Below are positions 17,625-50,810 of a DNA stretch of 64,000 nucleotides, piece after piece. The DNA is from Thuidium tamariscinum. Its lineage: Eukaryota; Streptophyta; Bryopsida; Hypnales; Thuidiaceae. The position numbers and the translations under genes are program-made. The stretch's first letter is position 1. Every line of letters begins with the position of its first letter. The notes under the pieces are model-generated. The model was not told the origin of the DNA. It saw nothing but the letters and a program-made list of their open reading frames with translations, and did no database searches. The stretch covers positions 25,737,052 to 25,801,051 of the forward strand of contig OX344755.2 in NCBI GenBank assembly GCA_947034885.2, read 5' to 3'.

Positions 17625-17935
17625 TATTGAGATTACAATGTTATGAATGGATGAAAGGCTTTACTTAGATGGTAGGAAGATACCAAGCCACATGAGTGGG
17701 CTGAACTTAAGCTAGAAGCCTTTCTCCAGTTATCCACAAACCATGTGGGATAACTACCTTTCATGGGCTGCCTTTGACTACGAGCAATACCCAATGGACT
17801 CTAAGACTAACCTAGTGTCTAATGCTACACCTAGGGCTGAATGTACATGGGCTACACTAATATGTACATGTTCTTCCACATACTCCTAAGGCTGTATGTA
17901 CATGGTCTACGCTAATATGAACATGATCTTCAACA
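17625..17935 (-). repeat. 3' LTR of element A (311-bp form)
   Basis: On the minus strand the LTR starts TGTTGAAGATCATG right after the polypurine tract and ends CTCAATA. It is 55 bp longer than the standard 256-bp LTR because its first ~55 bp are duplicated. The same 311-bp form occurs as a solo LTR at 52253-52563. Confidence 0.9.
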
Positions 17936-17946
17936 CTCCCACTTTG
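17936..17946 (-). promoter_or_regulatory. Polypurine tract of element A
   Basis: CAAAGTGGGAG on the minus strand directly precedes the 3' LTR start TGTTG. It is the plus-strand primer site of LTR retrotransposons. The same sequence precedes the LTRs of C, D, E, F and G. Confidence 0.85.
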
Positions 17947-18020
17947 AGAGTGGTCAAAGGTGCAATGAATTATCATTGCAATCAAGTTTGGGTTGGTGGC
18001 TTACCAAGTATGCCATAAAA

Positions 18021-20342
18021 CTATCTCAACACTCTCTTGACCGTTGCCCAATACTTTGGGCCATACTTAGACATGGATTCACATACAACACTCACCGATA
18101 ATGCCAAATCAGCCCTTGTGGCTTCCATGGCATGCTTCAAACAACTCACTGCTACCTTATAAGGCACACCTTGCATTTCAGCCCTCACCTCCTCAAATTT
18201 GTCATCTATGAGCTTGGGCAACTCCTCATGAGTATTAAGTGGTGTACCTAGGGCTTTGCACTCCATTTGCATAGCCAACTCCCACTTGCTTGCATCTTCA
18301 CAACCCAACACTTCTCTAAGTGTGGTTGCATCTTCACAACCCAACACTTCTCCAAGTGTGGTTGCATCTCCAAAGCAAGCTACATTGGCTTCTTCTTCAC
18401 GTTGTGGGGGAAGAATGTGATTCAGCCACCAATCTCCTAGAGGCTTACGAGTCCTTGTTGGATAACGTGGCTCCTCTTGCTCCTCCAAGGGCTGGTCTTG
18501 CTCCTCCAATGGCCGATCTTGCTCTTCCAAGGGCTGATCATGCTCCTTCTCCCTTGGTGAAGATCTTGGAGAAGGGGCTGATGGTTTCTTCCCTTGGGGT
18601 GTGGCCACCTTCTTCTTGGGCTCCACCCACTCTTCATCTTCTTCATCTTCATCTCCATCATCTTCCATGTGCACTCTTGGAGTTGTGCCCACCACATGGG
18701 CTGGTCCTCCATTTCTCCCACTTGGGCTCATCTCCAAGAGCTTGGGATCAGCACCTCCATCCTCCAAGAAGGTCACATCTCTACTCTTGATGATTTTCTT
18801 GCTCTCCACACACATCAGCATATAAGCCTTGGTTCCCTCACAATAACCAAGGAAAAGGCACTTGATGCCTTTGCCATCCAACTTGGTCCTCTTGGCACTT
18901 GGGACCAATGCATAGGCCATGCACCCAAAAATCCGCATGTGAGACACATGGGGCCTAATCCCACTCCAAGCTTCTTGGGGTGTCATGCTTGTCAAGGCTT
19001 GGGTGGGGCAATGGTTCCTTGTATACACCGCTGTAGACACCGCCTCCCCCCAAAGCTCATACTTCAGCCCTTGGCCATGAATCATAGACCTTGCCATCTC
19101 CACAATGGTGCGATTTGCATGCTCCGCTACATCGTTTTGTTGAGGAGTGTAAGGTGCTGATGTGTGGTGCTCAATGCCATGGGCCTTCAAGTACTCCTCA
19201 AAGGCCTTGGACACATACTCTCCTCCATTATCCGACCGCAGTACCTTCACCTTGCAATCAGATTGGGCCTCCACAAGGGCCTTCCAAGTCTCAAAATGCC
19301 CAAATACCTCACTCTTGCACTTCAACATATACACCCACACCTTGCGAGAGAAATCATCAATGAAGGTCACAAAATACCTTGCTCCTCCTATGGTTGTGGT
19401 CTTCATCGGCCCACACACATCTGAATGCACAAGCTCCAATGGCTTGGTGGCTCGGGTTGCCCCATCCTTGGGGAAGGGCTGTCTTGCTTGCTTGCCCTCA
19501 ATGCACCCCTTGCACACCATAGAACTCCAATGATGCTTGCAAGAAGAGAGGTTCAGCCCCTTCACAATGTGTTGGAGACTCTTCATGCTCTTCACATTCA
19601 AGTGCCCAAACCTCCTATGCCAAAGCTCCACAAGGTCTCCATGAGCTGATCCATGGGCTGATCCTTGGGCAACACAAGCCAAGGAAGTACCATTCACCTT
19701 GGTGAAGTGGAGGGGGTACAAGTGGCCCTCACGAGGGGCTGATGCTATCAAAACTCCACTTGGTGCCCTCACAACACACCCCACCATGTGGAAATGTACC
19801 CTCAAACCCCCCAAAGACAATCTACTCACCGAAAGCAAGTTGGCATGCAACTTGGGTACATGGAGCACTTCTCGGATCTGGATCCTCTTGGTCAGCCCCT
19901 TCACTTGCACCTCCACAAGGATCTCCCCCTTGCCAAGGGCCTCCACCATGCCATCGTCTCCCAAATAAATCTTCTTCCCCGAAATGGGCTGATAGGTGCG
20001 GAAGGCATCCCGATGGCTAGTCATATGTTGCGTGGCCCCCGAGTCCACAATCCAAGTGAACATGTTGGCCTTCTCCCCTCCTCCATCGGTGGCAAAGGCA
20101 ATCTCCTCCTCCTCTTTGGAGGCTTGGTGTGCACTTTGCTTGTCTTTGGCTTGGCTGCCCTTGCAATCCCTAGCAATGTGGCCTGGTTTTCCACACTTGA
20201 AGCACATCCTTGTCTCCTTGAACGCCTTGGTGTTGCCTCCTCTCCCATGTCTTGAGACAAGGGCTGATCCCTCCCCTTGGGACTCATTCTCCTCATCAAA
20301 CTTGTCAATGATGCGCACGCCTTCTCCTCCACTTGATGCCAT
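18021..20342 (-). CDS. Copia gag-protease-integrase polyprotein lacking RT core (element A)
   Basis: The frame is uninterrupted for 773 codons from the ATG at 20342, in a good context (ACCATGG). Visible in order: a remnant of the Gag start (MASSGGEGVRIID); a zinc knuckle CFKCGKPGHIARDC (about residues 47-60); the aspartic protease site WIVDSGATQHM (D near 100); the integrase HHCC region (LWHRRFGHLN ... C..C) and DDE residues in HSDVCGP, RSDNGGEY and VAEHANRTIVEMAR; then an SH3-like segment and an acidic linker rich in PLEEQD. After ECKAL the frame jumps in phase to GTPLNTHEELPK. This removes about 243 codons that D has, including the YVDD motif. It ends VKRVLR with a stop where RNase H should begin. 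The capsid part of Gag is missing between RIIDKF and NESQGEG. G-to-D and R-to-H changes lie next to the integrase catalytic Glu. Confidence 0.9.
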   Translation of the reverse strand: MASSGGEGVRIIDKFDEENESQGEGSALVSRHGRGGNTKAFKETRMCFKCGKPGHIARDCKGSQAKDKQSAHQASKEEEEIAFATDGGGEKANMFTWIVDSGATQHMTSHRDAFRTYQPISGKKIYLGDDGMVEALGKGEILVEVQVKGLTKRIQIREVLHVPKLHANLLSVSRLSLGGLRVHFHMVGCVVRAPSGVLIASAPREGHLYPLHFTKVNGTSLACVAQGSAHGSAHGDLVELWHRRFGHLNVKSMKSLQHIVKGLNLSSCKHHWSSMVCKGCIEGKQARQPFPKDGATRATKPLELVHSDVCGPMKTTTIGGARYFVTFIDDFSRKVWVYMLKCKSEVFGHFETWKALVEAQSDCKVKVLRSDNGGEYVSKAFEEYLKAHGIEHHTSAPYTPQQNDVAEHANRTIVEMARSMIHGQGLKYELWGEAVSTAVYTRNHCPTQALTSMTPQEAWSGIRPHVSHMRIFGCMAYALVPSAKRTKLDGKGIKCLFLGYCEGTKAYMLMCVESKKIIKSRDVTFLEDGGADPKLLEMSPSGRNGGPAHVVGTTPRVHMEDDGDEDEEDEEWVEPKKKVATPQGKKPSAPSPRSSPREKEHDQPLEEQDRPLEEQDQPLEEQEEPRYPTRTRKPLGDWWLNHILPPQREEEANVACFGDATTLGEVLGCEDATTLREVLGCEDASKWELAMQMECKALGTPLNTHEELPKLIDDKFEEVRAEMQGVPYKVAVSCLKHAMEATRADLALSVSVVCESMSKYGPKYWATVKRVLR

Positions 20343-20404
20343 GGTGAAGCATCTCCCACTTGTTGGCAGCACCGAATGTGTCTCCAAGAGTTGAAAAACT
20401 CAAT

Positions 20405-20590
20405 TCAGCCTCCAAACACTCCCTTGGCAGCCAATGGGGCTGAAATGGCACAATTCAGCCCTCACAAGGACCTCCCAAGATCCTCCAAGCTCCAAGATCG
20501 ACCAAACATTCCCTTGGCAGCCAATAGGGCTGAAATGGCACCAATCAGCCCTCACAAGGACCTCCAAAGATCCTTTGAACACCAAGGACG
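20405..20590 (-). repeat. 90-bp tandem duplication in the leader of A
   Basis: Two adjacent 90-bp units share CTTGGCAGCCAATRGGGCTG and ACAAGGACCTCC. C has two units (47220-47405) and E has one, so the number varies between copies. Confidence 0.8.
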
Positions 20591-20880
20591 GCCAAACACT
20601 CCTCACATGTGCATCACCTCCTCTCAACACCAATATAGATCCTAATCAAGCTCAAGTCCAACACATGAACATCATGAGCTAGTGCTACTTCAATTCAGCA
20701 AGTCCTCCTCCCAAAGAGGGTACTCCACACTCCAAGGAGCTCTAGGCTTCCAATCAGCCCTAGATGGAAGCTGCTACTCACAATCAGCACCTCAAGGACA
20801 ATAATGGTCTCCAACAACCCTAGTTGGATCACCAAGCCACCAAAGAATCCTACTTTGCTCTCAATGGCTCCACAAGGCTC

Positions 20881-21200
20881 ACAAGGGCACAATTCAGCCC
20901 TCTTGGGTTCACAAAACCCACTAATTCACCTCTCTCACTCACAAGAGCTCAAATCAGCCCTCTAGGGTTTGCAAATTCCACTAATTCACCTCACTCACTC
21001 ACAAGGGCACAAATCAGCCCTCTAGGGTTTGCGAAATCCACTAATTCGCCTCTATCACACACAAGGGCACAAATCAGCCCTCTAGGGTTCACAAATTCTA
21101 CTAATTCGCATCACTCACTCACAAGGGCACTAATCAGCCCTCTTAAGTTCACCAAGTCCACAAATTCGCCTCATTCACTCACAAGGGCACTAATCAGCCC
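20881..21200 (-). repeat. 60-bp tandem repeats in the leader of A (about 5 units)
   Basis: Exact 60-bp periodicity with the core AATCAGCCCTCTAGGGTT and CACTCACTCACAAGGGC. Because 60 is a multiple of three, the antisense strand stays open through the array as a 20-residue repeat. C has six units and E about three. Confidence 0.9.
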
Positions 21201-21714
21201 TCAATGGATGGCAAATGCCTTAAGCATCTCAAACATGCTTCCAAGGCTCACAATGGGTTCTCACTAGATTGCTTCCAAGGCTCACAATCACTCTCAGCAA
21301 TGCACCTAAGTGCACAATCAGCCTCAAAGCACTCTCACTCTAGTGCAATTGGCACAATCTCACTCATCAATGCACCCAAGTGCACAATTCAGCCTCAAAT
21401 GGCTCTCAATGCACACTTCTAAAAGCAAACTCAAACTAGGAGCATGCAACCAGCCCTAACTAGGTCTGATTACTACCATAAGCAACCTCTCCACCAAAAT
21501 GTACTCAAAACCTCACAAACCAGCCAATGAGAAAGCAACAAAACTTTCCTCTTCCCTTTTTTTAAAAAAAAATGCACTCAAAGTGTGTTTTTCCAAAGAA
21601 TACTCACACCATATGGTTTGTAGTTGAGAAGACACAAAAGGCTGATTGCTCCTCCAAGCTCCAAAATCTCCTCCAAATGATTTGAATTTCACCCTCAAGC
21701 GCAACTCCAAGTGC

Positions 21715-21728
21715 GTGGGCCCATAACC
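21715..21728 (-). promoter_or_regulatory. Primer-binding site of element A (half-tRNA type)
   Basis: GGTTATGGGCCCAC on the minus strand abuts the 5' LTR. It is complementary to GUGGGCCCAUAACC, the anticodon arm (with CAU anticodon) of plant initiator tRNA-Met. The usual plant copia site TGGTATCAGAGC is absent. Confidence 0.85.
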
Positions 21729-21988
21729 TTTTGAAGAAACAAAGGTATTGTTGGATGAAAGGCTTTACTTAGATGGTAGGAAGATCCAAAGACCCATGAG
21801 TGGGCTGATCTTATGCTAGAAGCCTTTCCCTAGTTATCCACAAACCATGTGGGATAACTACCTTTCATGGGTTGCCTTTGACTACGAGCAATACCCAATG
21901 GACTCTAAGACTAACCTAGTGTCTAATGCTACTTCTAGAGCTGTATGTATGTACATGGTCTACACTAATATGTACATGATCTTCAACA
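21729..21988 (-). repeat. 5' LTR of element A
   Basis: This 260-bp LTR starts TGTTGAAGATC on the minus strand. Its 3' end has drifted (TTTCTTCAAAA where other copies have TAATCTCAATA), which suggests age. Confidence 0.9.
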
Positions 21989-32294: not shown

Positions 32295-32308
32295 CCTTCA
32301 CACCCCGC

Positions 32309-35787: not shown

Positions 35788-36043
35788 TATTGAGATTACA
35801 AAGGTATTGATCGATGAAAGGCTTTACTTAGATGGTAGGAAGATACCAAGCCACATAAGTGGGCTGAACTTAAGCTAGAAGCCTTTCTCTAGTTATCCAC
35901 AAACCATGTGGGATAACTACCTTTCATGGACTGCCTTTGCCTACGAGCAATACCCAATGGACTCTAAGACTAACCTAGTGTCTAATGCTACTCCTAGGGC
36001 TGTATGTACATGGGCTACACTAATATGTACATGATCTTCAACA
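35788..36043 (-). repeat. 3' LTR of element E (256 bp)
   Basis: The standard 256-bp LTR, preceded on the element strand by CAAAGTGGGAG (36044-36054) and ending CAATA at 35788. The outer flank is AGTTC. No matching duplication exists because the other end of E is lost. Confidence 0.9.
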
Positions 36044-36128
36044 CTCCCACTTTGAGAGTGGTCAAAGGTGCAATGAATTATCATTGCAATCAAGTTTGGA
36101 TTGGTGGCTTACCAAGTATGCCATAAAA

Positions 36129-38402: not shown

Positions 38403-38851
38403 GGTGAAGCACCTCCCACTTGTTGGCAGCACCCAATGTGTCTCCAAGAGTTCACAAACTCAATTCAGCCTCCAAACACTCCCTTGGCAGCCAATAGGGC
38501 TGAAATGGCACCAATCAGCCCTCACAAGGACCTCCAAAGATCCTTTGAACACCAAGGACGGTCAAACACTCCTCACATGTGCATCACCTCCTCTTAACAC
38601 CAATTCAGATCCTAATCAAGCTCAAGTCCAACACATGGATGTCATGAGCTAGTGCTACTTCAATTCAGCAAGCCCTCCTCACAAAGAGGGTACTCCACAC
38701 TCCAAGGAGCTCTAGGCTTCCAATCAGCCCTAGATGGAAGCTCCTACTCACAATCAGCACCTGAAGAACAACAATGGTCTCCAACACCCCTAGTTGGATC
38801 ACCAAGCCACCAAAGAATCCCACTTTGCTCTCAATGGCTCCACAAGGCGCA

Positions 38852-39056
38852 CAAGGGCACAATTCAGCCCTCTAGGGGTCACAAAAACCCACTAATTCAC
38901 CTCTCTCACACACAAGGGTTCAAATCAGCCCTCTAGGTTTCACAAAGAATCCACAAATTCGCCTCATTCACTCACAAGGGCACTAATCAGCCCTCTTAAG
39001 TTCACCAAGTCCACAAATTCGCCTCACTCACTCACAAGGGCACTAATCAGCCCACA
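38852..39056 (-). repeat. 60-bp leader repeats of E (about 3 units)
   Basis: The same 60-bp unit as in A and C (ACAAGGGCACTAATCAGCCC core), in fewer copies. Confidence 0.85.
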
Positions 39057-39102
39057 ATGGATGGCAAATGCCTCAAGCATCTCAAACATGCTTCCAAGGC
39101 TC

Positions 39103-39300
39103 ACAATCACTCTCAACAATGCACCCAAGTGCACAATCAGCCTCAAAGCACTCTCACTCTAGTGCAAGTGGCACAATCTCACTCAACAATGCACCCAAGT
39201 GCACAATCAGCCTCAAAGCACTCTCACTCTAGTGCAATTGGCACAATCTCACTCAACAATGCACCCAAGTGCACAATCAGCCTCAAAGCACTTTCAATGC
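39103..39300 (-). repeat. 70-bp leader repeats of E (3 units)
   Basis: Three nearly identical 70-bp units contain AATGCACCCAAGTGCACAAT and TCAGCCTCAAAGCAC. A (21290-21400) and C (46440-46560) carry about two units. Confidence 0.85.
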
Positions 39301-39388
39301 ACACTTCTAAAAGCAAACTCAAACTAGGAGCATGCAACCAGCCCTAACTAGGTCTGATTACTACCATAAGCAACCTCTCCTCCGAAAT

Positions 39389-41690
39389 GCGTTTGAGGGA
39401 GGAATTCAAAGCATTTGGAGGAGATCTTGGAGCTTGGAGGAGTAATCAGCCCTTTGTCACTTTTCACCTACAAACCATATGGTGTGAGTCATTTTTCAAA
39501 TATCAAAAACTTTGGAGTGCATTTTTTAAGAAAAGGGAATTTTTTTTAGGAGCTATTGTTGGCTGGTTTGTGAGGTTTTGAGTACATTTTGGTGGAGGGG
39601 TTGCTTATGGTAGTAATCAGACCTAGTTAGGGCTGGTTGGAAGCTCCTAGTTTGAGTTTGTGCTTAGAAGTGTACATTGGGAGCCCATTGAGGTTGATTG
39701 TGCATTTGAGTGCATTGTGGATTGTGATGGTGCCAATTGCAATCTAGTGAGAGTCCTTTGGAGGCCTTGGAAGCATATTTGAGTTGCTTGAGGTGTTTGC
39801 CATGCAAAGAGGGCTGATTAGAGCCCTTGTGAGTGAGTGAGGCAATTCATGGATTTCTTGATCCTTAGAGGACTGATTTCTGCCCCTTGTGAGCCATTGA
39901 GGGCCAAGTAGGGTGCTTTGGTGGATTGGTGATCCAATTAGGGCTGTTGGAGGCCATTGTTGTCCTTGAGGTGCTTATTGTGAGTAGTAGCATCCATTTA
40001 GGGCTGATTGGAAGGCTTGAGCGCACTTGGAGATTGGTGGCTGAATCACATTCTTCCCCCACAACATGAAGAACAAGCCAATGTGGCTTTCCTTGGAGAT
40101 CCATCCACACTTGGAGAGGTGTTGCGTTGTGAGGATGCAAGCAAGTGGGAGTTGGCCATGCAAGAGGAGTACAAGGCCCTCATTACCAAAGGGACATGGG
40201 AGCTTGCTGCCCTTCCTTCCAAGAGATCAAGTGTGGGCTGTAAGTGGGTTTTCTCCACCAAAAGGGATGCTTTGGGTCATGTTGTGAGGTACAAGGCAAG
40301 GCTGGTTGCTAGGGGGTTTTCCCAAGTGGAGGGGGTGGATTTTAATGAGACTTTTGCTCCCGTTGCCAAGTTTAGCACCATCCGGTGTGTTGTGACTCTT
40401 GGGGCAGCCATGGACTTGGAGATGCACCAAATGGATGTGAAGACGGCTTTTCTCAACCCCAAGCTCAAGGAGGTCATCTACATGGATCAGCCCCAAGGCT
40501 TTGTGCAAGAAGGCCAAGAGCATCTCAAGTGCAAGTTGAAGAAGGCCCTTCCCGGGTTGAAGCAATCGGGGAGAGCATGGTATCAAGATATTGATGCCAT
40601 GTTTGTGAGGAAGGGCTTCCTAAGAAGCCATGCTGATCACTCATTGTACACCATGCAAAGTTGTGAGTTTTTGGTGATTGTGATCTTATATGTGGATGAT
40701 CTGATCCTTCTTGCAAGTAGCATGACCAAGATGCTTGAAGTGAAGGCCATGCTCAAGGAGGAGTATGAGATGACTGATCTTGGAGAGCTGAACTATTGCC
40801 TTGGAGTGGAGTTCAAGAGGGATAGGGCAGCCCGCACCATCACCATGAGCCAACGCAAGTACCTTGAAGAAATTCTCAAGCCCTTCAAGATGGAGGGGTG
40901 CAAAGCCATAGGTACACCACTTGAGACTCGTGTGAAGTTGCCCAAGCTCACGGATGCTGAATTTGGAGAGGTGAGGGCTGAAATGCAAGGTGTGCCTTAC
41001 AAGGCAGCAGTGGGTTGCTTGATGTATGCCATGGTGGCCACAAGGCCTGATTTGGCCTTTCCGGTGAGTGTTGTGAGTCAACACATGTCCAAGTATGGCC
41101 CAAAGCATTGGGCTGCGGTGAAGAGGGTGATGAGGTACCTTCAAGGCACACTTGGGCTGGAGTTGCAACTTGGAGGTGCCCATGTGACTTTGCATGGCTA
41201 TTGTGATGCGGATTGGGCGGGTGATGAGGCGGATAGGAGATCCACCACCGGCTACGTGTTTAAGCTTGGATTGGGTGCCATTACTTGGAATTCCAAGAGG
41301 CAGCCCACCATAGCTCTTTCTACAACGGAGGCTGAATACATGGCCATGAGCCAATGCACCAAGGAGGCCATTTGGTTGCGGCAACTCTTGGCTGATGTTG
41401 GCCTTGTCCAAGAGGGGAGCACACCCATTTGGTGTGACAACCAAGGGGCCATTGCTTTGGCCAAAAATCCCACCCACCACTCTCGGACGAAGCACATTGA
41501 TGTGCAACACCATTTCATTCGTGAACGAGTGGAGGCTGAGGTGATTGAGCTCAAGTATGTGCCTACCCAAGCTATGGTTGCTGATGTGCTGACCAAGGCT
41601 CTTGGGAAGCCACAACACCACAACTTGATTGAGAAGATGGGCCTTCGAGCCTTTGACCACTCTCAAAGTGGGAGTGTTGGAATCTCAATA
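39389..41690 (+). mobile_element. Copia-type retrotransposon D (keeps RT-RNase H, lacks gag-PR-IN)
   Basis: D has a leader of the B type (39389-40022), then a direct jump to the linker just before reverse transcriptase (LGDWWLNHILPP), an open RT-RNase H frame, and the polypurine tract CAAAGTGGGAG (41664-41674). Its 5' LTR and PBS are lost at the head-to-head junction with E. Its 3' LTR is reduced to 16 bp carrying only the two termini (TGTTGGAATCTCAATA). Confidence 0.85.
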
Positions 41691-41705
41691 CATGGTCTAT
41701 ACTAA
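40158..41705 (+). CDS. Copia reverse transcriptase-RNase H (element D)
   Basis: No stop interrupts the frame from 40008 to 41705. The first in-frame ATG is 40158, giving 515 residues that start right at the RT domain. Upstream in-frame codons from 40008 belong to the former linker. Visible: RT motifs KWVFSTKRDALG, YKARLVARGFSQVEGVDF, MDVKTAFLN and the catalytic ILYVDDLIL; the connection GCLMYAMVATRPDL; RNase H with YCDADWAGD, STTEAEYMAM and WCDNQGAI acidic residues; and TKHIDVQHHFIRE near the end. The polyprotein normally supplies gag, protease and integrase ahead of this; here they are deleted. Whether it is expressed is unknown, since its LTR promoter is gone. It is the only complete RT-RNase H in the window. 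Confidence 0.9.
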   Translation: MQEEYKALITKGTWELAALPSKRSSVGCKWVFSTKRDALGHVVRYKARLVARGFSQVEGVDFNETFAPVAKFSTIRCVVTLGAAMDLEMHQMDVKTAFLNPKLKEVIYMDQPQGFVQEGQEHLKCKLKKALPGLKQSGRAWYQDIDAMFVRKGFLRSHADHSLYTMQSCEFLVIVILYVDDLILLASSMTKMLEVKAMLKEEYEMTDLGELNYCLGVEFKRDRAARTITMSQRKYLEEILKPFKMEGCKAIGTPLETRVKLPKLTDAEFGEVRAEMQGVPYKAAVGCLMYAMVATRPDLAFPVSVVSQHMSKYGPKHWAAVKRVMRYLQGTLGLELQLGGAHVTLHGYCDADWAGDEADRRSTTGYVFKLGLGAITWNSKRQPTIALSTTEAEYMAMSQCTKEAIWLRQLLADVGLVQEGSTPIWCDNQGAIALAKNPTHHSRTKHIDVQHHFIRERVEAEVIELKYVPTQAMVADVLTKALGKPQHHNLIEKMGLRAFDHSQSGSVGISIHGLY

Positions 41706-41725
41706 TATGTACATGATCTTCAACA
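41675..41725. repeat. 51-bp chimeric mini-LTR
   Basis: Sixteen bases join the first 5 and last ~11 bases of the family LTR in plus orientation (TGTTG|GAATCTCAATA). They are followed by 35 bp that are the first 35 bp of the LTR in minus orientation, ending GATCTTCAACA. The polypurine tract of D precedes it, and internal sequence of F follows. Confidence 0.75.
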
Positions 41726-42129
41726 CTTTGGAGATGCAACCACACTTGGAGAAGTGTTGGGTTGTGAAGATGCAAGCAAGTGGGAGTTGGCTATGCAAAC
41801 GGAGTGCAAAGCCCTAGGCACACCACTTAACACTCATGAGGAGTTGCCCAAGCTCATAGATCACGAGTTGGAGGAGGCAAGGGCTGAAATGCAAGGTGTG
41901 CCTTATAAGGCAGCAGTGAGTTCTTTGAGGCATGCCATGGAAGCCACAAGGGCTGATTTGGCATTATCGGTGAGTCTTGTATGTGAATCCATGTCTAAGT
42001 ATGGCCCAATGTGTTGGGCAGCGGTCAAGAGAGTGTTGAGATAGTTTTATGGCGTACTTGGTAAGCCACCAACCCAAACTTGATTGCAGTGATAATTCAT
42101 TGCACCTTTGACCACTCTCAAAGTGGGAG
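41726..42129 (+). pseudogene. Fragment F: 3' end of the RT-deleted copia frame
   Basis: About 105 codons (GDATTLGEVLGCEDASKW to AAVKRVLR stop at 42044) are followed by the post-stop remnant and polypurine tract. The RT deletion point ECKAL/GTPLNTHEEL and the RNase H deletion point are the same as in A, C and E. No start and no upstream domains are present. Confidence 0.85.
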
Positions 42130-42385
42130 TGTTGAAGATCATGTACATATTAGTGTAGACCATGTACATACAGCCCTAGGAATAGTATTAGACACTAGAT
42201 TAGTCTTAGAGTCCATTGGGTATTGCTCGTAGTCAAAGGCAGCCCATGTAAGGTAGTTATCCCACAATGTTTGTGGATAACTAGGGAAAGGCTTCTAGCA
42301 TAAGATCAGCCTACTCAAGGGTCTTTGTATCTTCCTACTATCTAAGTAAAGCCTTTCATCCATCAATACCTTTGTAATCTCAATA
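42130..42385 (+). repeat. Shared LTR between fragments F and G (256 bp)
   Basis: A standard LTR, TGTTGAAGATC to CAATA. It is the 3' LTR of F (polypurine tract directly before) and lies where the 5' LTR of G would be. No PBS follows; instead the sequence enters G at GGAACTAAGGC. Confidence 0.9.
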
Positions 42386-43220
42386 GGAACTAAGGCTTAT
42401 AGGCTGATGTGTGTGGAGACCAAGAGGATCATCAAGATTAGGGATGTGACCTTCTTGGAAGATGGAGGTGCTGATCCCAAGCTCTTGGAGATGAGCCCAA
42501 GTGGGAGAAATGGAGGACCAGCCCATGTAGTGGGAACAACTCCAAGAGTGCACATGGAAGATGATGAAGATGAAGATGAAGAGCAAGGAGGGGAAGATGA
42601 GGACTTGGTGGAGCCCAAGAAGAAGGTGACTACTCCCCAAGTGAAGAGATCAGCTGTTCCTTCTCCAAGCACTTCACCAAGGGAGCAAGAGCATGATCAG
42701 CCCTTGGAGGAGCAAGAGGAGCCATGTTACCCAACAAGGACTCGTAGGCCTCTAGGAGATTGGTGGCTGAATCACATTCTTCCCCCACAACGTGAAGAAG
42801 AAGCCAACCTAGCTTGCTTTGAAGATGCAACCACACTTGGAGAAGTGTTGGGTTGTGGAGATGCAAGCAAGTGGGAGTTGGATTTGCAAATCGAGTGCAA
42901 AGCCCAAGGTGGACCACTTAACACTCATGAGGAGTTGCCCAAGCTCATAGATGACGAATTGGAGGAGGCGAGGGCTGAAATGCAAGGTGTGCCTTATAAG
43001 GCAGCGGTGAGTTGTTTGAAGCATGCCATGGAAGCCACAAGGGCTGATTTGGCATTGTCGGTGAGTGTTGTATGTGAATCCATGTCTAAGTATGGCCCAA
43101 AGAGTTGGGCAGCGGTCAAGAGAGTGTTGAGATAGTTTTATGGCGTACTTGGTAAGCCACCAACCCAAACTTGATTGCAATGATAATTCATTGCACCTTT
43201 GACCACTCTCAAAGTGGGAG
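42386..43220 (+). pseudogene. Fragment G: post-integrase to stop of the RT-deleted copia frame
   Basis: It starts within the SH3-like segment (TKAYRLMCVETKRIIK), continues through the acidic linker (DEDEEQGGEDEDLVEPKKK) and the RT-deletion junction (KAQGGPLNTHEE), and stops at 43133-43135. Then come the usual remnant and CAAAGTGGGAG. PBS, leader, gag, protease and integrase are missing. Confidence 0.85.
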
Positions 43221-43497
43221 TGTTAAAGATCATGTACATATTGATGACTAACATGTACATATTAGTGTAGACTATGTACATTCAGCCCTAGGAGTAGCAT
43301 TAGACTCTTAGTTAGCCTTAGAGTCCATTGGGTATTGCTCGTAGTCAAAGGCAGCCCATGAAAGGTAGTTATCCCACATGGTTTGTGGAGAACTAGAGAA
43401 AGGCTTCTAGCTTAAGTTCAGCCCACTCATGTGGCTTGGTATCTTCCTACCATCTAAGTAAAGCCTTTCATCCATCAATACCTTTGTAATCTCAATA
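43221..43497 (+). repeat. 3' LTR of G (277-bp form)
   Basis: It starts TGTTAAAGATCATG and contains a 21-bp partial duplication of its first part (ATGACTAACATGTACATATT). It ends CAATA at 43497, next to the broken RT piece of element B. Confidence 0.9.
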
Positions 43498-43523
43498 GGC
43501 TCATGGTGATGGTGCAGGCAGCC

Positions 43524-45369
43524 CTATCCCTCTTGAACTCCACTCCAAGGCTCATACTTCAGCCCTTGGCCATGAATCATGGCCCTTGCCATCTCCACAA
43601 TGGTCCGATTGGCACGCTCCGCTACGCCGTTTTGTTGAGGAGTGTAAGGTGCTGATGTATGGTGCTCAATGCCATGGGCTTGCAAGTACCCCTCAAAGGC
43701 CTTGGACACATACTCCCCTCCATTATCCGACCGCAACACCTTCACCTTGCAATCCGATTGGGCCTCCACAAGGGCCTTCCAAGTCTCAAAACGCCCAAAC
43801 ACCTCACTCTTGCACTTCAGCATATACACCCACACCTTGCGAGAGAAATCATCAATGAAGGTCACAAAATACCTTGCTCTTCCTATGGTTGAGGTCTTCA
43901 TTGGCCCGCACACATCGGAATGCACAAGCTCCAATGGCTTGCTGGCCCTTGTTGCCCCATCCTTGGGGAAGGGCTGCCTTGCTTGCTTGCCCTCAATGCA
44001 CCCCTTGCACACCATAGAACTCCAATCATGCTTGCAAGAAGAGAGATTCAGCCCCTTCACAATATGTTGGAGGCTCTTCATGCTCTTCACATTCAAGTGT
44101 CCAAGCCTCCTATGCCAAAGCTCCACAAGGTCCTCATGAGCTGATCCTTGGGCCACACAAGCCAAGGAAGTGCTATTCACCTTGGTGAAATGGAAGATGT
44201 ACAAGTTGCCCTCACGAGGGGCTGATGCAATCAAGACTCCACTTGGTGCCCTCACAACACATCCCACCATGTTGAATTGCACTTTCAAACCTCCCAAAGA
44301 CAACTTGCTTACCGAAAGCAAGTTGGCATGCAACTTGGGCACATGGAGCACCTCCTCAATTGTGATCCTCCTAGGCTGCCCCTTCACTTGCACCTCCACA
44401 TGGATCTCCCCCTTGCCAAGAGCCTCCACCATGCCATTGTCTCCCAAATAAATCTTCTTCCCCGAAATGGGCTGATAGGTGTGGAAGGCATCTCGATGGC
44501 TGGTCATGTGTTGGGTAGCACCTGAATCCACAATCCAAGTGAACATGTTGGCCTTCTCCCCTCCTCCATGGGTGGCAAAGGCGAAATCCTCCTCCTCCTC
44601 CTCCTCTTTGGAAGCTTGGTGTGCACTCTCCTTGTCTTTGGCTTGGCTGGTCTTGCAATGCTTGGCAATGTGGCCTGATTTGCCACACTTGAAGCATGTC
44701 CTTGTCTCCTTGAACGCCTTGGTGGTGCCTCCCTTGCCATGCCTTGACACAAGGGCTGATCCCCTCCCCTTGGGGCTCATTCTCCTTGCGCTTTGTCACC
44801 TCATGCATCAAGCGGGCTGTCACAAACTCCAAGGTCAGATCCTTGGTGGCCCTTGTCTCCAAGGCGGTGATGAGGAACTCATAGAATGGTGGCAAGCTCT
44901 CCAACAATGTCATCACCACATCTCCCTCCGTCACGGGCGCCTCCAAACAAGCCAACTCATCAGCAAGAGCCTTGATCTTGTTGACATGGTCCAACATGTC
45001 GTCCTCCTCTTGCATCTTGCTAGTGAAGAACTTCCGCCGAAGGAAGAGGATGTTGGAGAGGCTCTTGGTCTCATGGATGTTGCAAAGGGTGGTCCACGCA
45101 TGGGCTGGTCCCTTGCAATGGCGGATGTGTGCAATCTGCCGGTCCGCAAGGTTGATGGCAATGAGGGCAAAGGCCTTCTTCTCCTTCCTCTCAAATGCCT
45201 TCTTGGTCTTTGGATCAGCATCCTCACTTGGAGGCTCTTCACTCCCATCCACCACATCCCACAAGTCCTTCTCCGCAAGAATCATCTCCATCTTGAACTT
45301 CCACATGCCAAAGTTCTCCCCATTGAACCTGTCAATGATGCGCACGCCCTCTCCTCCACTTGTTGCCAT
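43524..45369 (-). pseudogene. Copia gag-protease-integrase of B with full-length Gag, frameshifted
   Basis: From ATG 45369 (MATSGGEGVRIIDRFNGENF), about 202 codons encode a copia-type Gag (UBN2-like: MWKFKMEMILAEKDLWDVV, LADRQIAHIRHCKGPAHAW, LLESLPPFYEFLITAL). One extra base in a C run at 44761-44764 shifts the frame. The next frame then has the zinc knuckle CFKCGKSGHIAKHC, protease WIVDSGATQHM and integrase (HRRLGHLN, HSDVCGP, RSDNGGEY, GVAERANRTIVEMAR). At KYEPW it fuses to a few RT residues in the wrong phase and ends. A, C and E lack both the extra base and most of this Gag. Confidence 0.85.
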
Positions 45370-45864
45370 GGTGAAGCACCTCCCACTTGTTGGCAGCACC
45401 CCAAGTGTCTCCAACTGAATTCAGCCTCCAAACACTCACTTGGAAGCCAATTGGGCTGAAATGGCAACAATCAGCCCTTCCAAGGACCTTCCAAGCTCCT
45501 CCCAATCCAAGGAAACGACCTAAACACTCCACACAAGTGCCTCACCTCTACTCCATACCAAATCAGACCCTAATCAAGCTCAAATTCACCACATGAATGT
45601 CATGGGCTAGTGCTCCTTTAATTCAGCAAGCAATCTCACAATGCTCCTCACAAATAGGGTACTCCACACAACAAGGCGCTCAAGCCTTCCAATCAGCCCT
45701 AAATGGATGCTACTACTCACAATAAGCACCTCAAGGACAACAATGGCCTCCAATAGCCCTAATTGGATCACCAATCCACCAAAGCACCCTAATTGGCCCT
45801 GAATGGCTCACAAGGGGCAGAAATCAGTCCTCTAAGGATCAAGAAATCCATGAATTGCCTCACT

Positions 45865-46120
45865 TGTTGAAGATCATGTACATATTAGTATAGACCATGT
45901 ACATACAGCCCTAGGTGTAGCATTAGACACTAGGTTAGTCTTAGAGTCCATTGGGTATTGCTCGTAGTCAAAGGCAGCCCATGAAAGGTAGTTACCCCAC
46001 ATGGTTTGTGGATAACTAGGGAAAGGCTTCTAGCATAAGATCAGCTCACTCATGGGTCTTTGTATCTTCCTACCATCTAAGTAAAGCCTTTCATCCATCA
46101 ATACCTTTGTAATCTCAATA
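45865..46120 (+). repeat. 5' LTR of element C
   Basis: 256 bp, TGTTGAAGATC to CTCAATA. ATGTACAT, an 8-bp palindrome with a GTAC core, occurs twice in the first 50 bp. Confidence 0.97.
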
Positions 46121-46134
46121 GGTTATGGGCCCAC
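46121..46134 (+). promoter_or_regulatory. Primer-binding site of element C (half-tRNA type)
   Basis: GGTTATGGGCCCAC begins at the first base after the LTR. It pairs over 14 bases with the anticodon arm of initiator tRNA-Met. The fit implies a primer ending near position 40 of the tRNA, i.e. a cleaved 5' half. Confidence 0.87.
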
Positions 46135-46580
46135 GCACTTGGAGTTGCGCTTGAGGGTGAAATTCAAATCATTTGGAGGAGATCTTGGAGCTTGGAGGAG
46201 CAATCAGCCTTTTGTGTCTTTTTCACCTACAAACCATATGGTGTGAGTATTCTTTTGAAAAACACACTTTGAGTGCATTTTTTTAAAAAGGAAGAGGAAA
46301 GTTTTGTTGCTTTCTCATTGGCTGGTTTGTGAGGTTTTGAGTACATTTTGGTGGAGTGGTTGCTTATGGTAGTAATCAGACCTAGTTAGGGCTGGTTGCA
46401 TGCTCCTAGTTTGAGTTTGCTTTTAGAAGTGTGCATTGAGAGCCATTTGAGGCTGAATTGTGCACTTGGGTGCATTGATGAGTGAGATTGTGCCAATTGC
46501 ACTTTAGTGAGAGTGCTTTGAGGCTGATTGTGCACTTGGGTGCATTGTTGAGTGAGATTGTGAGCCTTGGAAGCATGTTT

Positions 46581-46940
46581 GTGAGTGAGTGAGGCGAATT
46601 TGTGGACTTGGTGAACTTAAGAGGGCTGATTAGTGCCCTTGTGAGTGAGTGAGGCGAATTCGTGGATTTTTGTGAACCCTAGAGGGCTGACTTGTGCCCT
46701 TGTGTGTGAGAGAGGAGAATTAGTGGATTTTGAAAATCCTAGAGGGCTGATTTGAGCCCTTGTGTGTGAGAGAGGCGAATTAGTGGAATTTGTGAACCCA
46801 AGAGGGCTGAATTGTGCCCTTGTGAGTGAGAGAGGTGAATTAGTGGGTTTTGTGAACCCAAGAGGGCTGAATTGTGCCCTTGTGAGTGAGAGAGGTGAAT
46901 TAGTGAGTTTTCTGAACCCAAGAGGGCTGAATTGTGCCTT
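46581..46940 (+). repeat. 60-bp leader repeats of C (6 units)
   Basis: Six head-to-tail 60-bp units with the core AGAGGGCTGAATTGTGCCCT and GTGAGTGAGAGAGG. The minus strand remains open through the array because the unit is 20 codons long. Confidence 0.92.
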
Positions 46941-47472
46941 GTGGAGCCATTGAAAGCAAAGTAGGATTCTTTGGTGGCTTGGTGATCCAACTAGGGTTGT
47001 TGGAGACAATTGTTGTCCTTGAGGTGCTGATTGTGAGTAGGAGCTTCCATCTAGGGCTGATTGGAAGCCTAGAGCTCCTTGGAGTGTGGAGTAACCTCTT
47101 TGGGAGGAGGGCTTGCTGAATTGAAGTAGCACTAGCTCATGATGTTCATGTGTTGGACTTGAGCTTGATTAGGGTCTGAATTGGTGTTGAGAGGAGGTGA
47201 TGCACATGTGAGGAGTGTTTGGCCGTCCTTGGTGTTCAAAAGATCTTGGGAGGTCCTTGTGAGGGCTAATTGGTGCCATTTCAACCCTATTGGCTGCCAA
47301 GGGAATGTTTGGTCGTTCTTGGAGCTTGGAGGATCTTGGGAGGTCCTTGTGAGGGCTGAATTGTGCCATTTCAGCCCCATTGGTTGCCAAGGGAGTGTTT
47401 GGAGGCTGAATTGAGTTTGTGAACTCTTGAAGACACATTGGGTGCTGCCAACAAGTGGGAGGTGCTTCACCA

Positions 47473-49734
47473 ATGAAGGAGCTGACCATGGAGTTTGTGA
47501 CGGCCCAATTGATGCAAGAGGTGACCAAGCACAAGGAGAATGAGTCCCAAGGGGAGGGATCAGCCCTTGTCTCAAGACATGGGAGAGGAGGCAACACCAA
47601 GGCGTTCAAGGAGACAAGGACGTGCTTCAAGTGTGGCAAACCAGGCCACATTGCTAGGGATTGCAACGGCAGCCAAGCCAAAGACAAGGAGAGTGCACAC
47701 CAAGCCTCCAAAGAGGAGGAGGAGATTGCCTTTGCCACCCATGGAGGAGGGGAGAAGGCCAACATGTTTACTTGGATTGTGGACTCGGGAGCCACCCAAC
47801 ATATGACCAGCCATCGGGATGCCTTCCACACCTATCAGCCCATTTCGGGGAAGAAGATTTATTTGGGAGACAATGGCATGGTGGAGGCCCTTGGCAAGGG
47901 GGAGATCCTTGTGGAGGTGCAAGTGAAGGGGCTGACCAAGAGGATCCAGATCCAAGAAGTGCTCCATGTACCCAAGTTGCATGCCAACTTGCTTTCGGTG
48001 AGTAGATTGTCTTTGGGAGGTTTGAAGGTACATTTCAACATGGTGGGGTGTGTTGTGAGGGCACCAAGTGGAGTTTTGATAGCATCAGCCCCTCGTGAGG
48101 GCCACTTGTACCGCCTCCACTTCACCAAGGTGAATGGTACTTCTTCGGCTTGTGTTGGCCAAGGATCAGCCCAAGGATCAGCTCATGGAGACCTTGTGGA
48201 GCTTTGGCATAGGAGGCTTGGACACTTGAATGTGAAGAGCATGAGGAGCCTCCAACACATTGTGAAGGGGCTGAACCTCTCTTCTTGCAAGCATGATTGG
48301 AGTTCTATGGTGTGCAAGGGGTGCATTGAGGGCAAGCAAGCAAGGCAGCCCTTCCCCAAGGATGGGCCAACAAGGGCCACCAAGCCATTGGAGCTTGTAC
48401 ATTCAGATGTGTGCGGGCCGATGAAGACCACATCCATTGGAGGAGCAAGGTATTTTGTGACCTTCATTGATGATTTCTCTCGCAAGGTGTGGGTGTATAT
48501 GCTGAAGTGCAAGAGTGAGGTGTTTGGGCGTTTTGAGACTTGGAAGGCCCTTGTGGAAGCCCAATCTGATTGCAAGGTGAAGGTGCTGCGGTCGGATAAT
48601 GGAGGGGAGTATGTGTCCAAGGCCTTTGAGGAGTACTTGAAGGCCCATGGCATTGAGCACCACACATCAGCACCTTACACTCCTCAACAAAACGGTGTAG
48701 CGGAGCGTGCGAATCGCACCATTGTGGAGATGGCAAGGTCTATGATTCATGGCCAAGGGCTGAAGTATGAGCTTTGGGGGGAGGCGGTGTCTACAGCGGT
48801 TTATACAAGGAACCGATGCCCCACCCAAGCCTTGACTAGCATGACACCCCAAGAAGCTTGGAGTGGAATTAGGCCCCATGTGTCTCACATGCGGATTTTT
48901 GGGTGCATGGCCTATGCATTGGTCCCAAGTGCCAAGAGGACCAAGTTGGATGCCAAAGGCATCAAGTGCCTTTTCCTTGGTTATTGTGAGGGAACCAAGG
49001 CGTATAGGCTGATGTGTGTGGAGAGCAAGGCCATCATCAAGAGTAGAGATGTGACCTTCTTGGAGGATGGAGGTGCTGATCCTAAGCTCTTGGAGATGAG
49101 CCCAAGTGGGAGTAATGGAGGACCAGCCCATGTGGTGGGCACAACTCCAAGAGTGCACATGGAAGATGATGAAGATGAAGAGCAAGGAGGGGAAGATGAG
49201 GACTTGGTGGAGCCCAAGAAGAAGGTGACTACTCCCCAAGTGAAGAGATCAGCTGCTCCTTCTCCAAGCACTTCACCAAGGGAGCAAGAGCATGATCAGC
49301 CCTTGGAGGAGCAAGAGGAGCCACGTTATCCAACAAGGACTCGTAGGCCTCTAGGAGATTGGTGGCTGAATCACATTCTTCCCCCACAACGTGAAGAAGA
49401 AGCCAACCTAGCTTGCTTTGAAGATGCAACCACACTTGGAGAAGTGTTGGGTTGTGGAGATGCAAGCAAGTGGGAGTTGGCTATGCAAACGGAGTGCAAA
49501 GCCCAAGGTACACCACTTAACACTCATGAGGAGTTGCCCAAGCTCATAGATGACGAATTGGAGGAGGCAAGGGCTGAAATGCAAGGTGTGCCTTATAAGG
49601 CAGTGGTGAGTTCTTTGAAGCATGTCATGGAAGCCACAAGGGCTGATTTGGCATTATCGGTGAGTGTTGTATGTGAATCTATGTCTAAGTATGGCCCAAA
49701 GTGTTGGGCAGCGGTCAAGAGAGTGTTGAGATAG
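47473..49734 (+). CDS. Copia zinc knuckle-protease-integrase frame lacking RT (element C)
   Basis: 753 codons, uninterrupted, from the first in-frame ATG (MKELTMEFVTAQLMQEV). The N-terminus is the last part of Gag, joined directly to the former start region; this Gag deletion is larger at the 5' side than and different from that of A/E. Then come the zinc knuckle CFKCGKPGHIARDC (about residues 50-63), protease WIVDSGATQHM, and integrase with HRRLGHLN, HSDVCGP, RSDNGGEY and GVAERANRTIVEMAR, all key residues present. The SH3-like segment and acidic linker follow. At ECKAQ/GTPLNTHEEL the RT core is removed in frame, and the frame stops after VKRVLR. Integrase and protease look functional by motif. 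Confidence 0.93.
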   Translation: MKELTMEFVTAQLMQEVTKHKENESQGEGSALVSRHGRGGNTKAFKETRTCFKCGKPGHIARDCNGSQAKDKESAHQASKEEEEIAFATHGGGEKANMFTWIVDSGATQHMTSHRDAFHTYQPISGKKIYLGDNGMVEALGKGEILVEVQVKGLTKRIQIQEVLHVPKLHANLLSVSRLSLGGLKVHFNMVGCVVRAPSGVLIASAPREGHLYRLHFTKVNGTSSACVGQGSAQGSAHGDLVELWHRRLGHLNVKSMRSLQHIVKGLNLSSCKHDWSSMVCKGCIEGKQARQPFPKDGPTRATKPLELVHSDVCGPMKTTSIGGARYFVTFIDDFSRKVWVYMLKCKSEVFGRFETWKALVEAQSDCKVKVLRSDNGGEYVSKAFEEYLKAHGIEHHTSAPYTPQQNGVAERANRTIVEMARSMIHGQGLKYELWGEAVSTAVYTRNRCPTQALTSMTPQEAWSGIRPHVSHMRIFGCMAYALVPSAKRTKLDAKGIKCLFLGYCEGTKAYRLMCVESKAIIKSRDVTFLEDGGADPKLLEMSPSGSNGGPAHVVGTTPRVHMEDDEDEEQGGEDEDLVEPKKKVTTPQVKRSAAPSPSTSPREQEHDQPLEEQEEPRYPTRTRRPLGDWWLNHILPPQREEEANLACFEDATTLGEVLGCGDASKWELAMQTECKAQGTPLNTHEELPKLIDDELEEARAEMQGVPYKAVVSSLKHVMEATRADLALSVSVVCESMSKYGPKCWAAVKRVLR

Positions 49735-49808
49735 TTTTATGGCGTACTTGGTAAGCCACCAACCCAAACTTGATTGCAATGATAATTCATTGCACCTTTG
49801 ACCACTCT

Positions 49809-49819
49809 CAAAGTGGGAG
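49809..49819 (+). promoter_or_regulatory. Polypurine tract of element C
   Basis: CAAAGTGGGAG ends one base before the 3' LTR start at 49820, the position expected for the plus-strand primer. Confidence 0.87.
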
Positions 49820-50075
49820 TGTTGAAGATCATGTACATATTAGTATAGACCATGTACATACAGCCCTAGGTGTAGCATTAGACACTAGGTTAGTCTTAGA
49901 GTCCATTGGGTATTGCTCGTAGTCAAAGGCAGCCCATGAAAGGTAGTTATCCCATATGGTTTGTGGATAACTAGGGAAAGGCTTCTAGCATAAGATCAGC
50001 CCACTCATGGGTCTTTGTATCTTCCTACCATCTAAGTAAAGCCTTTCATCCATCAATACCTTTGTAATCTCAATA
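49820..50075 (+). repeat. 3' LTR of element C
   Basis: 256 bp, nearly identical to the 5' LTR. Differences seen are two in the GGTAGTTAYCCCAYATGG segment and one in CAGCYCACTC. Confidence 0.97.
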
Positions 50076-50540
50076 TCACTCACTCACAAGGGCTCTAATC
50101 AGCCCTCTATGCATGGCAAACTCCTCAAGCAACTCAAATATGCTTCCAAGGCCTCCAAAGGACTCTCACTAGATTGCAATTGGCACCATCACAATCCACA
50201 ATGCACTCAAATGCACAATCAGCCTCAATGGGCTCCCAATGTACACTTCTAAGCACAAACTCAAACTAGGAGCTTCCAACCAGCCCTAACTAGGTCTGAT
50301 TACTACCATAAGCAAACTCTCACCCAAAATGTACTCAAAACCTCACAAACCAGCCAACAATAGCTCTTAAAAAAAATTCCCTTTTTTTAAAAAAATGCAC
50401 TCCAAAGTTGTTGATATTTGCAAAATGACTCACACCATATGGTTTGTAGGTGAAAAGTGACAAAGGGCTGATTACTCCTCCAAGCTCCAAGATCTCCTCC
50501 AAATGCTTTGAATTCCTCCCTCAAACGCAACTCCAAGTGC

Positions 50541-50554
50541 GTGGGCCCATAACC
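50541..50554 (-). promoter_or_regulatory. Primer-binding site of element B
   Basis: GGTTATGGGCCCAC on the minus strand directly follows the 5' LTR of B; same half-tRNA site as in A and C. This shows the priming mode is shared by both subfamilies. Confidence 0.85.
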
Positions 50555-50810
50555 TATTGAGATTCCAATGTTATGAATGGATGAAAGGCTTTACTTAGAT
50601 GGTAGGAAGATACCATGGCCCAAGAGTGGGCTGAACATAAGGGAGAAGCCTTTCCCTAGTTATCCACAAACCATGTGGGATAACCAAACACCATGGGCTG
50701 CCTTTGACTACAAGCAATACCCAAGGGACTCTAAGCCTAACTAAGAGTCTACTCCTACTCCTAGGGCTGAATGTACATAGTCTACACTAATATGTACATG
50801 ATCTTCAGCA
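50555..50810 (-). repeat. 5' LTR of element B (256 bp)
   Basis: On the minus strand it starts TGCTGAAGATC (one change from TGTTG) and ends CTCAATA before the PBS. The outer flank is TAAGG; the other end of B is lost, so no duplication can be tested. Confidence 0.92.

What the first reader, a model, noticed from the sequence alone, without database searches (positions are those of the whole stretch)
17625..50810. A copia family split into complementary defective elements: integrase carriers without RT, and an RT carrier without integrase
A, C, E, F and G share two in-frame or near-frame internal deletions at the same points (ECKAL/GTPL, about 730 bp; after VKRVLR, about 465 bp) that remove the RT core and most of RNase H. 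A and C keep open frames for zinc knuckle, protease and integrase. D lacks exactly gag-protease-integrase but has an uninterrupted RT-RNase H frame; B has the only full-length Gag. C has clean target duplications and near-identical LTRs, so a copy without RT moved recently. Sharing of deletion points by five copies means the deleted form itself was copied. Known: non-autonomous copia elements mobilised in trans exist (e.g. barley BARE-2). Inference: a division of labour in which deleted members still supply integrase and protease.
Basis: partly seen in the sequence, partly recalled or inferred. Interest (0 to 1): 0.85.

Follow-up and report, generated by a model that had tools for sequence, protein, structure and literature searches.

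The report
Clustered copia elements keeping only integrase
These are jumping genes that lost their copying enzyme and, in most copies, their shell protein, yet spread within one spot on each chromosome of a plant-like genome while their cut-and-paste enzyme stayed under selection, which suggests that defective elements still contribute one working protein to a shared pool.

Summary
Genome-wide (363 Mb) the RT junction occurs 101 times, the intact RT breakpoint 48; 89 of 100 listed deleted and 44 of 48 intact places lie in one 61-158 kb cluster per chromosome, 11 of 11. 26 of 26 readable 3' flanks of 30 deleted loci differ, so the deleted form was copied. In 34 deleted copies the protease end-integrase-SH3 part is constrained (omega 0.28) while the RT remnant of the same frame drifts (0.98); variants private to the class agree. 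Protease alone shows no such sign. So RT-less, mostly Gag-less elements moved in trans yet kept integrase. D is no usable helper (no 5' LTR, no primer site, almost no 3' LTR); long open full-length frames exist elsewhere. The layout matches moss RLC5/tRLC5 putative centromeres; homology, host and CENH3 were not testable. New: selection on integrase in an RT-less class.

The parts
45865..50075 (+). Element C: complete RT-less and Gag-less copy inserted in B
   Evidence: LTRs 3 of 256 sites apart, target duplication TCACT; domains
45865..46120 (+). 5' LTR of C
46121..46136 (+). Primer binding site of C, identical in A and B over 29 bases; resembles the complement of the initiator tRNA-Met anticodon arm (tRNA recalled)
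46548..46968 (+). 60-bp tandem repeats in the leader of C
47461..47497 (+). C-type gag-deletion junction with a new in-frame ATG at 47473; 29 places genome-wide
47473..49734 (+). Open frame of C: zinc knuckle, protease, integrase, SH3, linker, RT remnant
49495..49529 (+). RT-core deletion junction (deletion 1, 729 bp) in C; 101 places genome-wide
49747..49751 (+). RNase H deletion junction (deletion 2, 450 bp) in C, at a CTTGG repeat
49820..50075 (+). 3' LTR of C
17625..21988 (-). Element A: RT-less and Gag-less copy with an open frame; LTRs not sisters
18021..20399 (-). Open frame of A (792 codons)
18226..18260 (-). Deletion 1 junction in A
20280..20318 (-). A-type gag-deletion junction in A; 75 places genome-wide
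19306..20351 (-). Tract identical to E (37366-38411), covers the gag junction
35788..39389 (-). Element E: RT-less and Gag-less, two in-frame stops, 5' LTR and primer site lost
36334..36368 (-). Deletion 1 junction in E
38340..38378 (-). A-type gag-deletion junction in E
39388..41690 (+). Element D: B-like leader joined to RT-RNase H; gag-protease-integrase and nearly all LTR sequence missing
40008..41705 (+). RT-RNase H open frame of D, first ATG at 40158
41726..42385 (+). F: RT-less 3' fragment with LTR; deletion 1 junction 41805-41839
42386..43497 (+). G: RT-less 3' fragment with LTR; deletion 1 junction 42896-42930
43538..45864 (-). Element B, main part: full gag, frameshift, then zinc knuckle-protease-integrase, truncated before RT
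50076..50810 (-). Element B continued beyond C: leader and 5' LTR
51128..51383 (+). Solo LTR, target duplication CATTA
52253..52563 (-). Solo LTR of 311 bp with the partial duplication, target duplication AATGT

Best explanation
A semi-autonomous copia subfamily that lives with its full-length relative in one cluster per chromosome, probably the centromere. An ancestor lost the RT core and most of RNase H; gag was lost by two separate in-frame deletions. Shown: the forms are widespread at different insertion sites, and the integrase-SH3 part of their frame is under purifying selection while the RT remnant is not. Inferred: their RNA, with LTR ends and primer site much like those of gag-bearing B, is packaged and reverse transcribed by Gag and RT from full-length copies, and the protein that they still encode supplies integrase to the same particles, so that copies with a working integrase leave more offspring. 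Inferred also: this integrase steers insertion into the cluster.
For: RT junction 101 places, reversed-pattern control 0. 26 of 26 readable 3' flanks of 30 deleted loci differ. Two gag junctions, 75 and 29 places. Omega in 34 deleted copies: protease end-integrase-SH3 0.28 (0.21-0.38), RT remnant 0.98 (0.58-1.72), 0 of 1000 bootstraps reverse the order; in 27 intact copies 0.34 and 0.40. Shared variants in the deleted class carry fewer amino-acid changes than singletons in that part (67 S, 58 N, 0 stops against 64, 119, 8; P 3e-4) but not in the RT remnant (12, 38, 1 against 12, 41, 3; P 0.49); variants absent from the intact class agree (P 0.005). All three shared or convergent deletions that were sized are in frame. 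15 of 21 near-complete deleted copies show neither stop nor frameshift in the stretch seen. Primer site identical over 29 bases in B and C; last 8 LTR bases identical, first 8 with one difference.
Against: Integrase core has been exchanged between classes (between-class dS 0.126 against 0.26-0.29 in protease end, SH3 and RT remnant; mixed loci), so part of the constraint may be borrowed. Protease end: omega 0.65 in the deleted class. In the window the contrast integrase against RT remnant is only P 0.07 for A-C. Only A-C-E-G and the first 30 listed copies (chromosomes C1-C5, exact junctions) were read, 34 of 101, which favours well-kept copies. The leader of C has 12 upstream ATGs in 1,352 bases. 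No RNA or protein evidence. A and E carry changes next to integrase catalytic residues.
Confidence: 0.62

Rival explanations
1. Pure parasites with borrowed integrase: the deleted elements contribute nothing, and their integrase looks constrained because template switching and gene conversion with full-length copies keep refreshing it.
For: Between-class dS is low and patchy in the integrase core (0.07-0.19 by window) against 0.26-0.29 in neighbouring parts; mixed loci L020, L042, L065 and L047; A/E exchange tract.
Against: Variants private to the deleted class are still depleted of amino-acid changes (P 0.005 against singletons, P 0.001 against the RT remnant); SH3, with between-class dS 0.29, has omega 0.27 within the deleted class.
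Confidence: 0.25
2. Selection for an open frame as such (for example escape from nonsense-mediated decay), not for the protein.
For: No stop among 125 shared variants of the integrase part against 8 of 191 singletons; ORF indels between A, C, E and G are multiples of three.
Against: It does not predict depletion of amino-acid changes in integrase but not in the RT remnant of the same frame.
Confidence: 0.06
3. The host has taken over the truncated elements, for example as transcribed centromere DNA, and selection acts for the host.
For: One cluster per chromosome; tRLC5 of Physcomitrium is transcribed where meiosis takes place and has been proposed to serve the centromere (PMC7466625, passages).
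Against: A centromere role needs DNA or RNA, not a conserved integrase; many dispersed copies rather than one fixed gene.
Confidence: 0.04
4. The deletions are retrocopied splice products, made again and again, so that shared junctions do not mean shared descent.
For: Identical junctions in many copies; BARE RNA is known to be spliced (PMC3735527, passages).
Against: No best-scoring placement of the five deletions tested has GT-AG ends. The RT remnant of the deleted class has 41 near-fixed differences from the intact class in 113 codons, so the deleted form is an old lineage.
Confidence: 0.03

Closest known systems
RLC5 / tRLC5 of mosses (PMC7466625: passages and section 15; PMC9946827: passages)
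   Same: Copia family with full-length and truncated members in one cluster per chromosome, proposed centromere; truncated form transcribed and recently mobile in Physcomitrium.
   Different: What tRLC5 lacks is not stated in the text I saw, and selection on its integrase is not discussed there; host and sequence homology of the present family were not testable.
Wheat RLG_Quinta, RLG_Sabrina and RLG_WHAM (PMC11302176, PMC9744471: passages)
   Same: Non-autonomous LTR elements with a retained coding frame, moved by a full-length partner with the same primer site and LTR ends; called semi-autonomous or mutualistic.
   Different: Gypsy elements that keep GAG (or GAG-protease) and lack RT and integrase; here integrase is kept and Gag and RT are lost.
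BARE2 of barley (PMC3735527: passages) and Tos17 of rice (PMC3977881: abstract and results section)
   Same: Copia elements without Gag, moved in trans.
   Different: Both keep RT; BARE2 cannot make Gag for another reason, and neither has the RT deletion.
CoLT of Phytophthora sojae (PMC7082073: passages)
   Same: Copia-like element concentrated in every centromere, shown there by CENP-A binding.
   Different: Oomycete; no RT-deleted amplified subclass in the passages seen.
Hemiviruses such as Drosophila copia, Ty5 and Osser (PMC1181622: passages)
   Same: Primer site that looks complementary to an anticodon arm of initiator tRNA.
   Different: Here only compared with a recalled tRNA; the elements are deletion derivatives.

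Membership tests
Ty1/copia LTR retrotransposon | Domain order gag, protease, integrase, RT (RVT_2), RNase H between LTRs | tested here: met
   Pfam gag, zinc knuckle, protease, integrase and SH3 in B, A, C and E, and RVT_2 in D; no single window copy holds all, but the genome has RVT_2 matches in open frames near 1,400 codons at the same clusters
Ty1/copia LTR retrotransposon | 5-bp target duplication | tested here: met
   C TCACT, solo LTRs CATTA and AATGT; A has none clean
RLC5/tRLC5 | One dense copia cluster per chromosome | tested here: met
   89 of 100 deleted and 44 of 48 intact places in one cluster per chromosome, 11 of 11, with bounds drawn from the data
RLC5/tRLC5 | Full-length and truncated forms side by side | tested here: met
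   101 deleted and 48 intact places
RLC5/tRLC5 | Sequence homology to RLC5 of Physcomitrium or Ceratodon | not testable with these tools
   No RLC5 sequence held; Lang 2018 not held
RLC5/tRLC5 | Moss host | not tested
Centromeric retrotransposon | Coincides with CENH3 chromatin | not testable with these tools
   No ChIP data
Semi-autonomous element of the Quinta/Sabrina kind | Keeps GAG, lacks RT and integrase | tested here: not met
   65 of 67 deleted places with a gag pattern upstream have a gag deletion, and integrase is kept
BARE2/Tos17 kind (Gag-less) | Gag missing, RT kept | tested here: not met
   RT core deleted; 4 of 48 intact-RT places at about 2.0 kb from a gag-deletion pattern may be of that kind
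Hemivirus | Primer site complementary to the anticodon arm of initiator tRNA-Met | tested here: inconclusive
   Match of 14 bases to a recalled plant tRNA; the genome's own tRNA search did not complete

The most novel reading that the evidence does not exclude
Integrase donors: a retrotransposon class that shed its polymerase and, twice over, its shell protein, yet is selected for its own integrase, which it contributes to particles built by full-length partners and which steers all of them into one cluster per chromosome, so that defective elements help to maintain the likely centromere.
Probability: 0.42. Interest if true: 0.78.

Novelty: new variant of a known kind. Interest (0 to 1): 0.62.

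Why it matters
The semi-autonomous elements in the papers I saw give Gag to the common pool; this one would give integrase, the part that chooses where copies land. It shows within single reading frames that one domain is conserved while its neighbour decays, and so offers a test of whether retrotransposon proteins act in cis or are shared. If the clusters are centromeres, their DNA would be kept up in large part by elements that cannot copy themselves.

Tried and rejected
Rejected: D as helper (no 5' LTR or primer site, almost no 3' LTR). Rejected: splicing as source of the junctions. Rejected: one gag loss shared by A, C and E (two junctions). Rejected after the domain split: selection on protease. 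A codon shuffle of the GGGCTGA motif was first run in a wrong frame and repeated in frame. No tRNA by ARAGORN and no Rfam match at gathering score in the window. Global alignment of truncated loci gave false indels; stretches under 78% identity to C were masked before counting. Dropped from mean between-class and within-class distances: L020, L042, L047, L065; from omega of the intact class: L042, L047, L065; from the reduced deleted set: L010, L020, L025, L026, L037. Paper searches aimed at LTR elements that keep integrase but lack RT listed none that I recognised as such from title and abstract; most listed papers were not opened, so this is weak. The one search for tRLC5 listed one paper. 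Lang 2018 is not held.
Full report
What is there. The window is AT-rich DNA with plant-type copia domains and lies at C7:25737052-25801051 of a 363-Mb assembly with 19 contigs. It holds a nest of short-LTR copia elements. Element C (45865-50075, +) is clean: LTRs differ at 3 of 256 bases, target duplication TCACT. It sits in element B (-, 43538-45864 and 50076-50810), and D carries the matching empty site. A (17625-21988, -) and E (35788-39389, -) are further copies; F and G (41726-43497, +) are fragments arranged in tandem; two solo LTRs have duplications CATTA and AATGT.

The deletions. Against D, the five copies A, C, E, F and G lack 729 bp of RT and 450 bp of RNase H at the same points. 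Both lengths are multiples of three, so the frame runs from the zinc knuckle through protease, integrase and SH3 into the RT remnant and ends with a stop codon next to the second junction. A and C are open; E has two stops. Gag is also gone in A, C and E, but not by one event: C lost 525 bp from the start codon on and has a new in-frame ATG at the junction; A and E kept the start and 16 codons and lost about 537 bp. A and E share an exact run of 1,046 bp across this point while their leaders differ at 66 of 993 sites, so that tract was exchanged recently. No best-scoring placement of the five deletions tested has GT-AG ends.

Genome-wide. With up to 3 mismatches the RT junction occurs 101 times (66 of the 100 listed are exact), the intact RT breakpoint 48, the A-type gag junction 75, the C-type 29 and intact gag 49; all five reversed-pattern controls are 0. 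Joining positions (100 of 101 RT junctions were listed; a gag pattern was sought 1.7-2.8 kb upstream on the same strand): 44 RT-deleted places have the A-type gag deletion (two at odd spacings of 1.75 and 2.65 kb), 21 the C-type, 2 intact gag, 33 none; of 48 intact-RT places 25 have intact gag, 8 a gag-deletion pattern (4 of these at the spacing of about 2.0 kb expected for one element), 15 none. The two gag-bearing RT-deleted places fit an intermediate.

Place. 89 of 100 deleted and 44 of 48 intact places lie in one cluster of 61-158 kb per chromosome on 11 of 11 chromosomes; the bounds, 1.48 Mb in all, were drawn after seeing the places. C5 has a second group at 27.96-28.24 Mb, and a few places are isolated. 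Clusters are well inside some chromosomes (13.5 of 29.1 Mb on C6, 5.0 of 32.5 on C4) and near an end of others; lengths were seen for C1-C8 only. That fits centromeres better than subtelomeres, but centromere identity is inferred.

Copies, not duplications. Of 30 deleted loci, 26 have a readable 3' LTR end; 26 of 26 flanks differ, and 16 of 26 lie directly inside another copy of the family (one of these, L011, continues into a primer-site region and may be a tandem; no chance expectation was computed).

Selection, window. A against C has 27 synonymous and 28 nonsynonymous changes from zinc knuckle to SH3, where 23% synonymous is expected from the leader's mutation spectrum (P 3e-5); the RT remnant has 5 and 14. 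The direct contrast of the two parts is P 0.07 for A-C and 0.009 for C-E. Outside the A/E tract the excess holds (P 0.004 for A-C, 6e-4 for C-E, 0.02 for A-E). By domain, integrase carries it (15 S, 8 N for A-C); protease (6, 9), zinc knuckle (2, 4) and SH3 (4, 7) are not significant for A-C.

Selection, genome. I used 34 deleted copies (30 loci, the first listed, from C1-C5 and with exact junctions, plus A, C, E and G) of 101, and 30 of 48 intact loci, over codons 180-753 of C's ORF; zinc knuckle and most of the protease were not covered. Within the deleted class omega is 0.28 (95% 0.21-0.38) for protease end-integrase-SH3, 0.52 for the linker and 0.98 (0.58-1.72) for the RT remnant; in a reduced set of 29 it is 0.30, 0.53 and 0.91; in 27 intact copies 0.34, 0.34 and 0.40. 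The protease end alone has 0.65 in the deleted and 0.27 in the intact class, so protease is not shown to be kept. Variants shared by copies, which mostly passed through replication, are depleted of amino-acid changes against singletons in the integrase part (67 S, 58 N, 0 stops against 64, 119, 8; P 3e-4) but not in the RT remnant (12, 38, 1 against 12, 41, 3; P 0.49). Variants absent from the intact class behave alike (23 S, 24 N against 37, 96, 5; P 0.005; against the RT remnant, 4 S and 26 N, P 0.001). In the intact class the same private test shows no depletion (2 S, 13 N against 15, 40), with few variants. Of 21 near-complete deleted copies 17 have no stop in this stretch, and 15 have neither stop nor frameshift.

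Exchange between classes. Mean between-class dS is 0.27 at the protease end, 0.126 in the integrase core, 0.29 in SH3, 0.20 in the linker and 0.26 in the RT remnant. FastTree trees, midpoint-rooted and without support shown, separate the classes apart from L020, L042 and L065 for integrase and L047 for SH3-linker; L047 and L015 overlap in the genome. So integrase has been exchanged at times, and part of the constraint could be borrowed. The SH3 result (omega 0.27 within the deleted class) and the private variants speak against this as the whole story.

How it probably works. The RNA of the deleted elements keeps LTR ends and a primer site like those of gag-bearing B (last 8 LTR bases identical, first 8 with one difference, primer region identical over 29 bases). 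Copies with long open frames exist and would supply Gag and RT (inferred). Selection on the remaining integrase suggests that the deleted copies' own product is used, either because the protein prefers its own RNA or because the pool is short of integrase (inferred). Against easy translation, the leader of C has 12 ATGs in 1,352 bases. The primer site resembles the complement of the initiator tRNA-Met anticodon arm, as in hemiviruses (PMC1181622, passages; tRNA recalled; genome test not answered).

What is known. In Physcomitrium the copia family RLC5, with full-length and truncated (tRLC5) members, clusters at a single place per chromosome that could be the centromere, and tRLC5 is transcribed and its family has polymorphic insertions (PMC7466625, passages and section 15); clusters found with Ceratodon RLC5 occur on each Sphagnum chromosome (PMC9946827, passages). 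The present case is most likely the same kind of system, but homology and host were not testable. Wheat Quinta, Sabrina and WHAM keep GAG and lack RT and integrase (PMC11302176, PMC9744471, passages); BARE2 and Tos17 lack Gag (PMC3735527, passages; PMC3977881, abstract and results). I found no report of an RT-less class that keeps integrase under selection, within the listings and the passages read.

Verdict. A real, copied, RT-less and mostly Gag-less copia class with a conserved integrase; the division-of-labour idea survives in changed form, with full-length copies, not D, as the likely partner.

Noticed in passing
17625-21988 and 35788-50810: The heptamer GGGCTGA/TCAGCCC is scattered on both strands through LTR, leader and coding parts: TCAGCC 5.6-6.9 per kb in the element stretches against 0.2-0.6 outside; 10 TCAGCCC in C's ORF against a mean of 0.9 and a maximum of 5 in 1000 synonymous shuffles, 11 against 1.1 in A's; none in B's gag. 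Unexplained.
   Followed up: partly
46548-46968 and 20850-21254: 60-bp tandem repeats with a GGGC...GCCC core in the long leader, copy number differing between A, C and E.
   Followed up: no
19306-20351 and 37366-38411: Exact 1,046-bp match between A and E within diverged copies, a recent gene-conversion or recombination tract.
   Followed up: partly
17625-17935, 52253-52563, 43222-43497: LTR variants with a partial duplication of the first 55 bases or a shortened form of it.
   Followed up: no
30702-31223: Open frame with a proteasome-subunit domain (E 3e-28) between A and E, so gene sequence lies inside or at the edge of the cluster.
   Followed up: no
41690-41725: Thirty-six bases of an inverted LTR start between D and F, a trace of a complex rearrangement.
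   Followed up: no
56292-56661: A 370-bp palindromic stretch, 96% self-complementary.
   Followed up: no
41726-43497: Tandem pol-LTR-pol-LTR arrangement of F and G; tandem LTR retrotransposons are described in PMC11899658 (passages).
   Followed up: no
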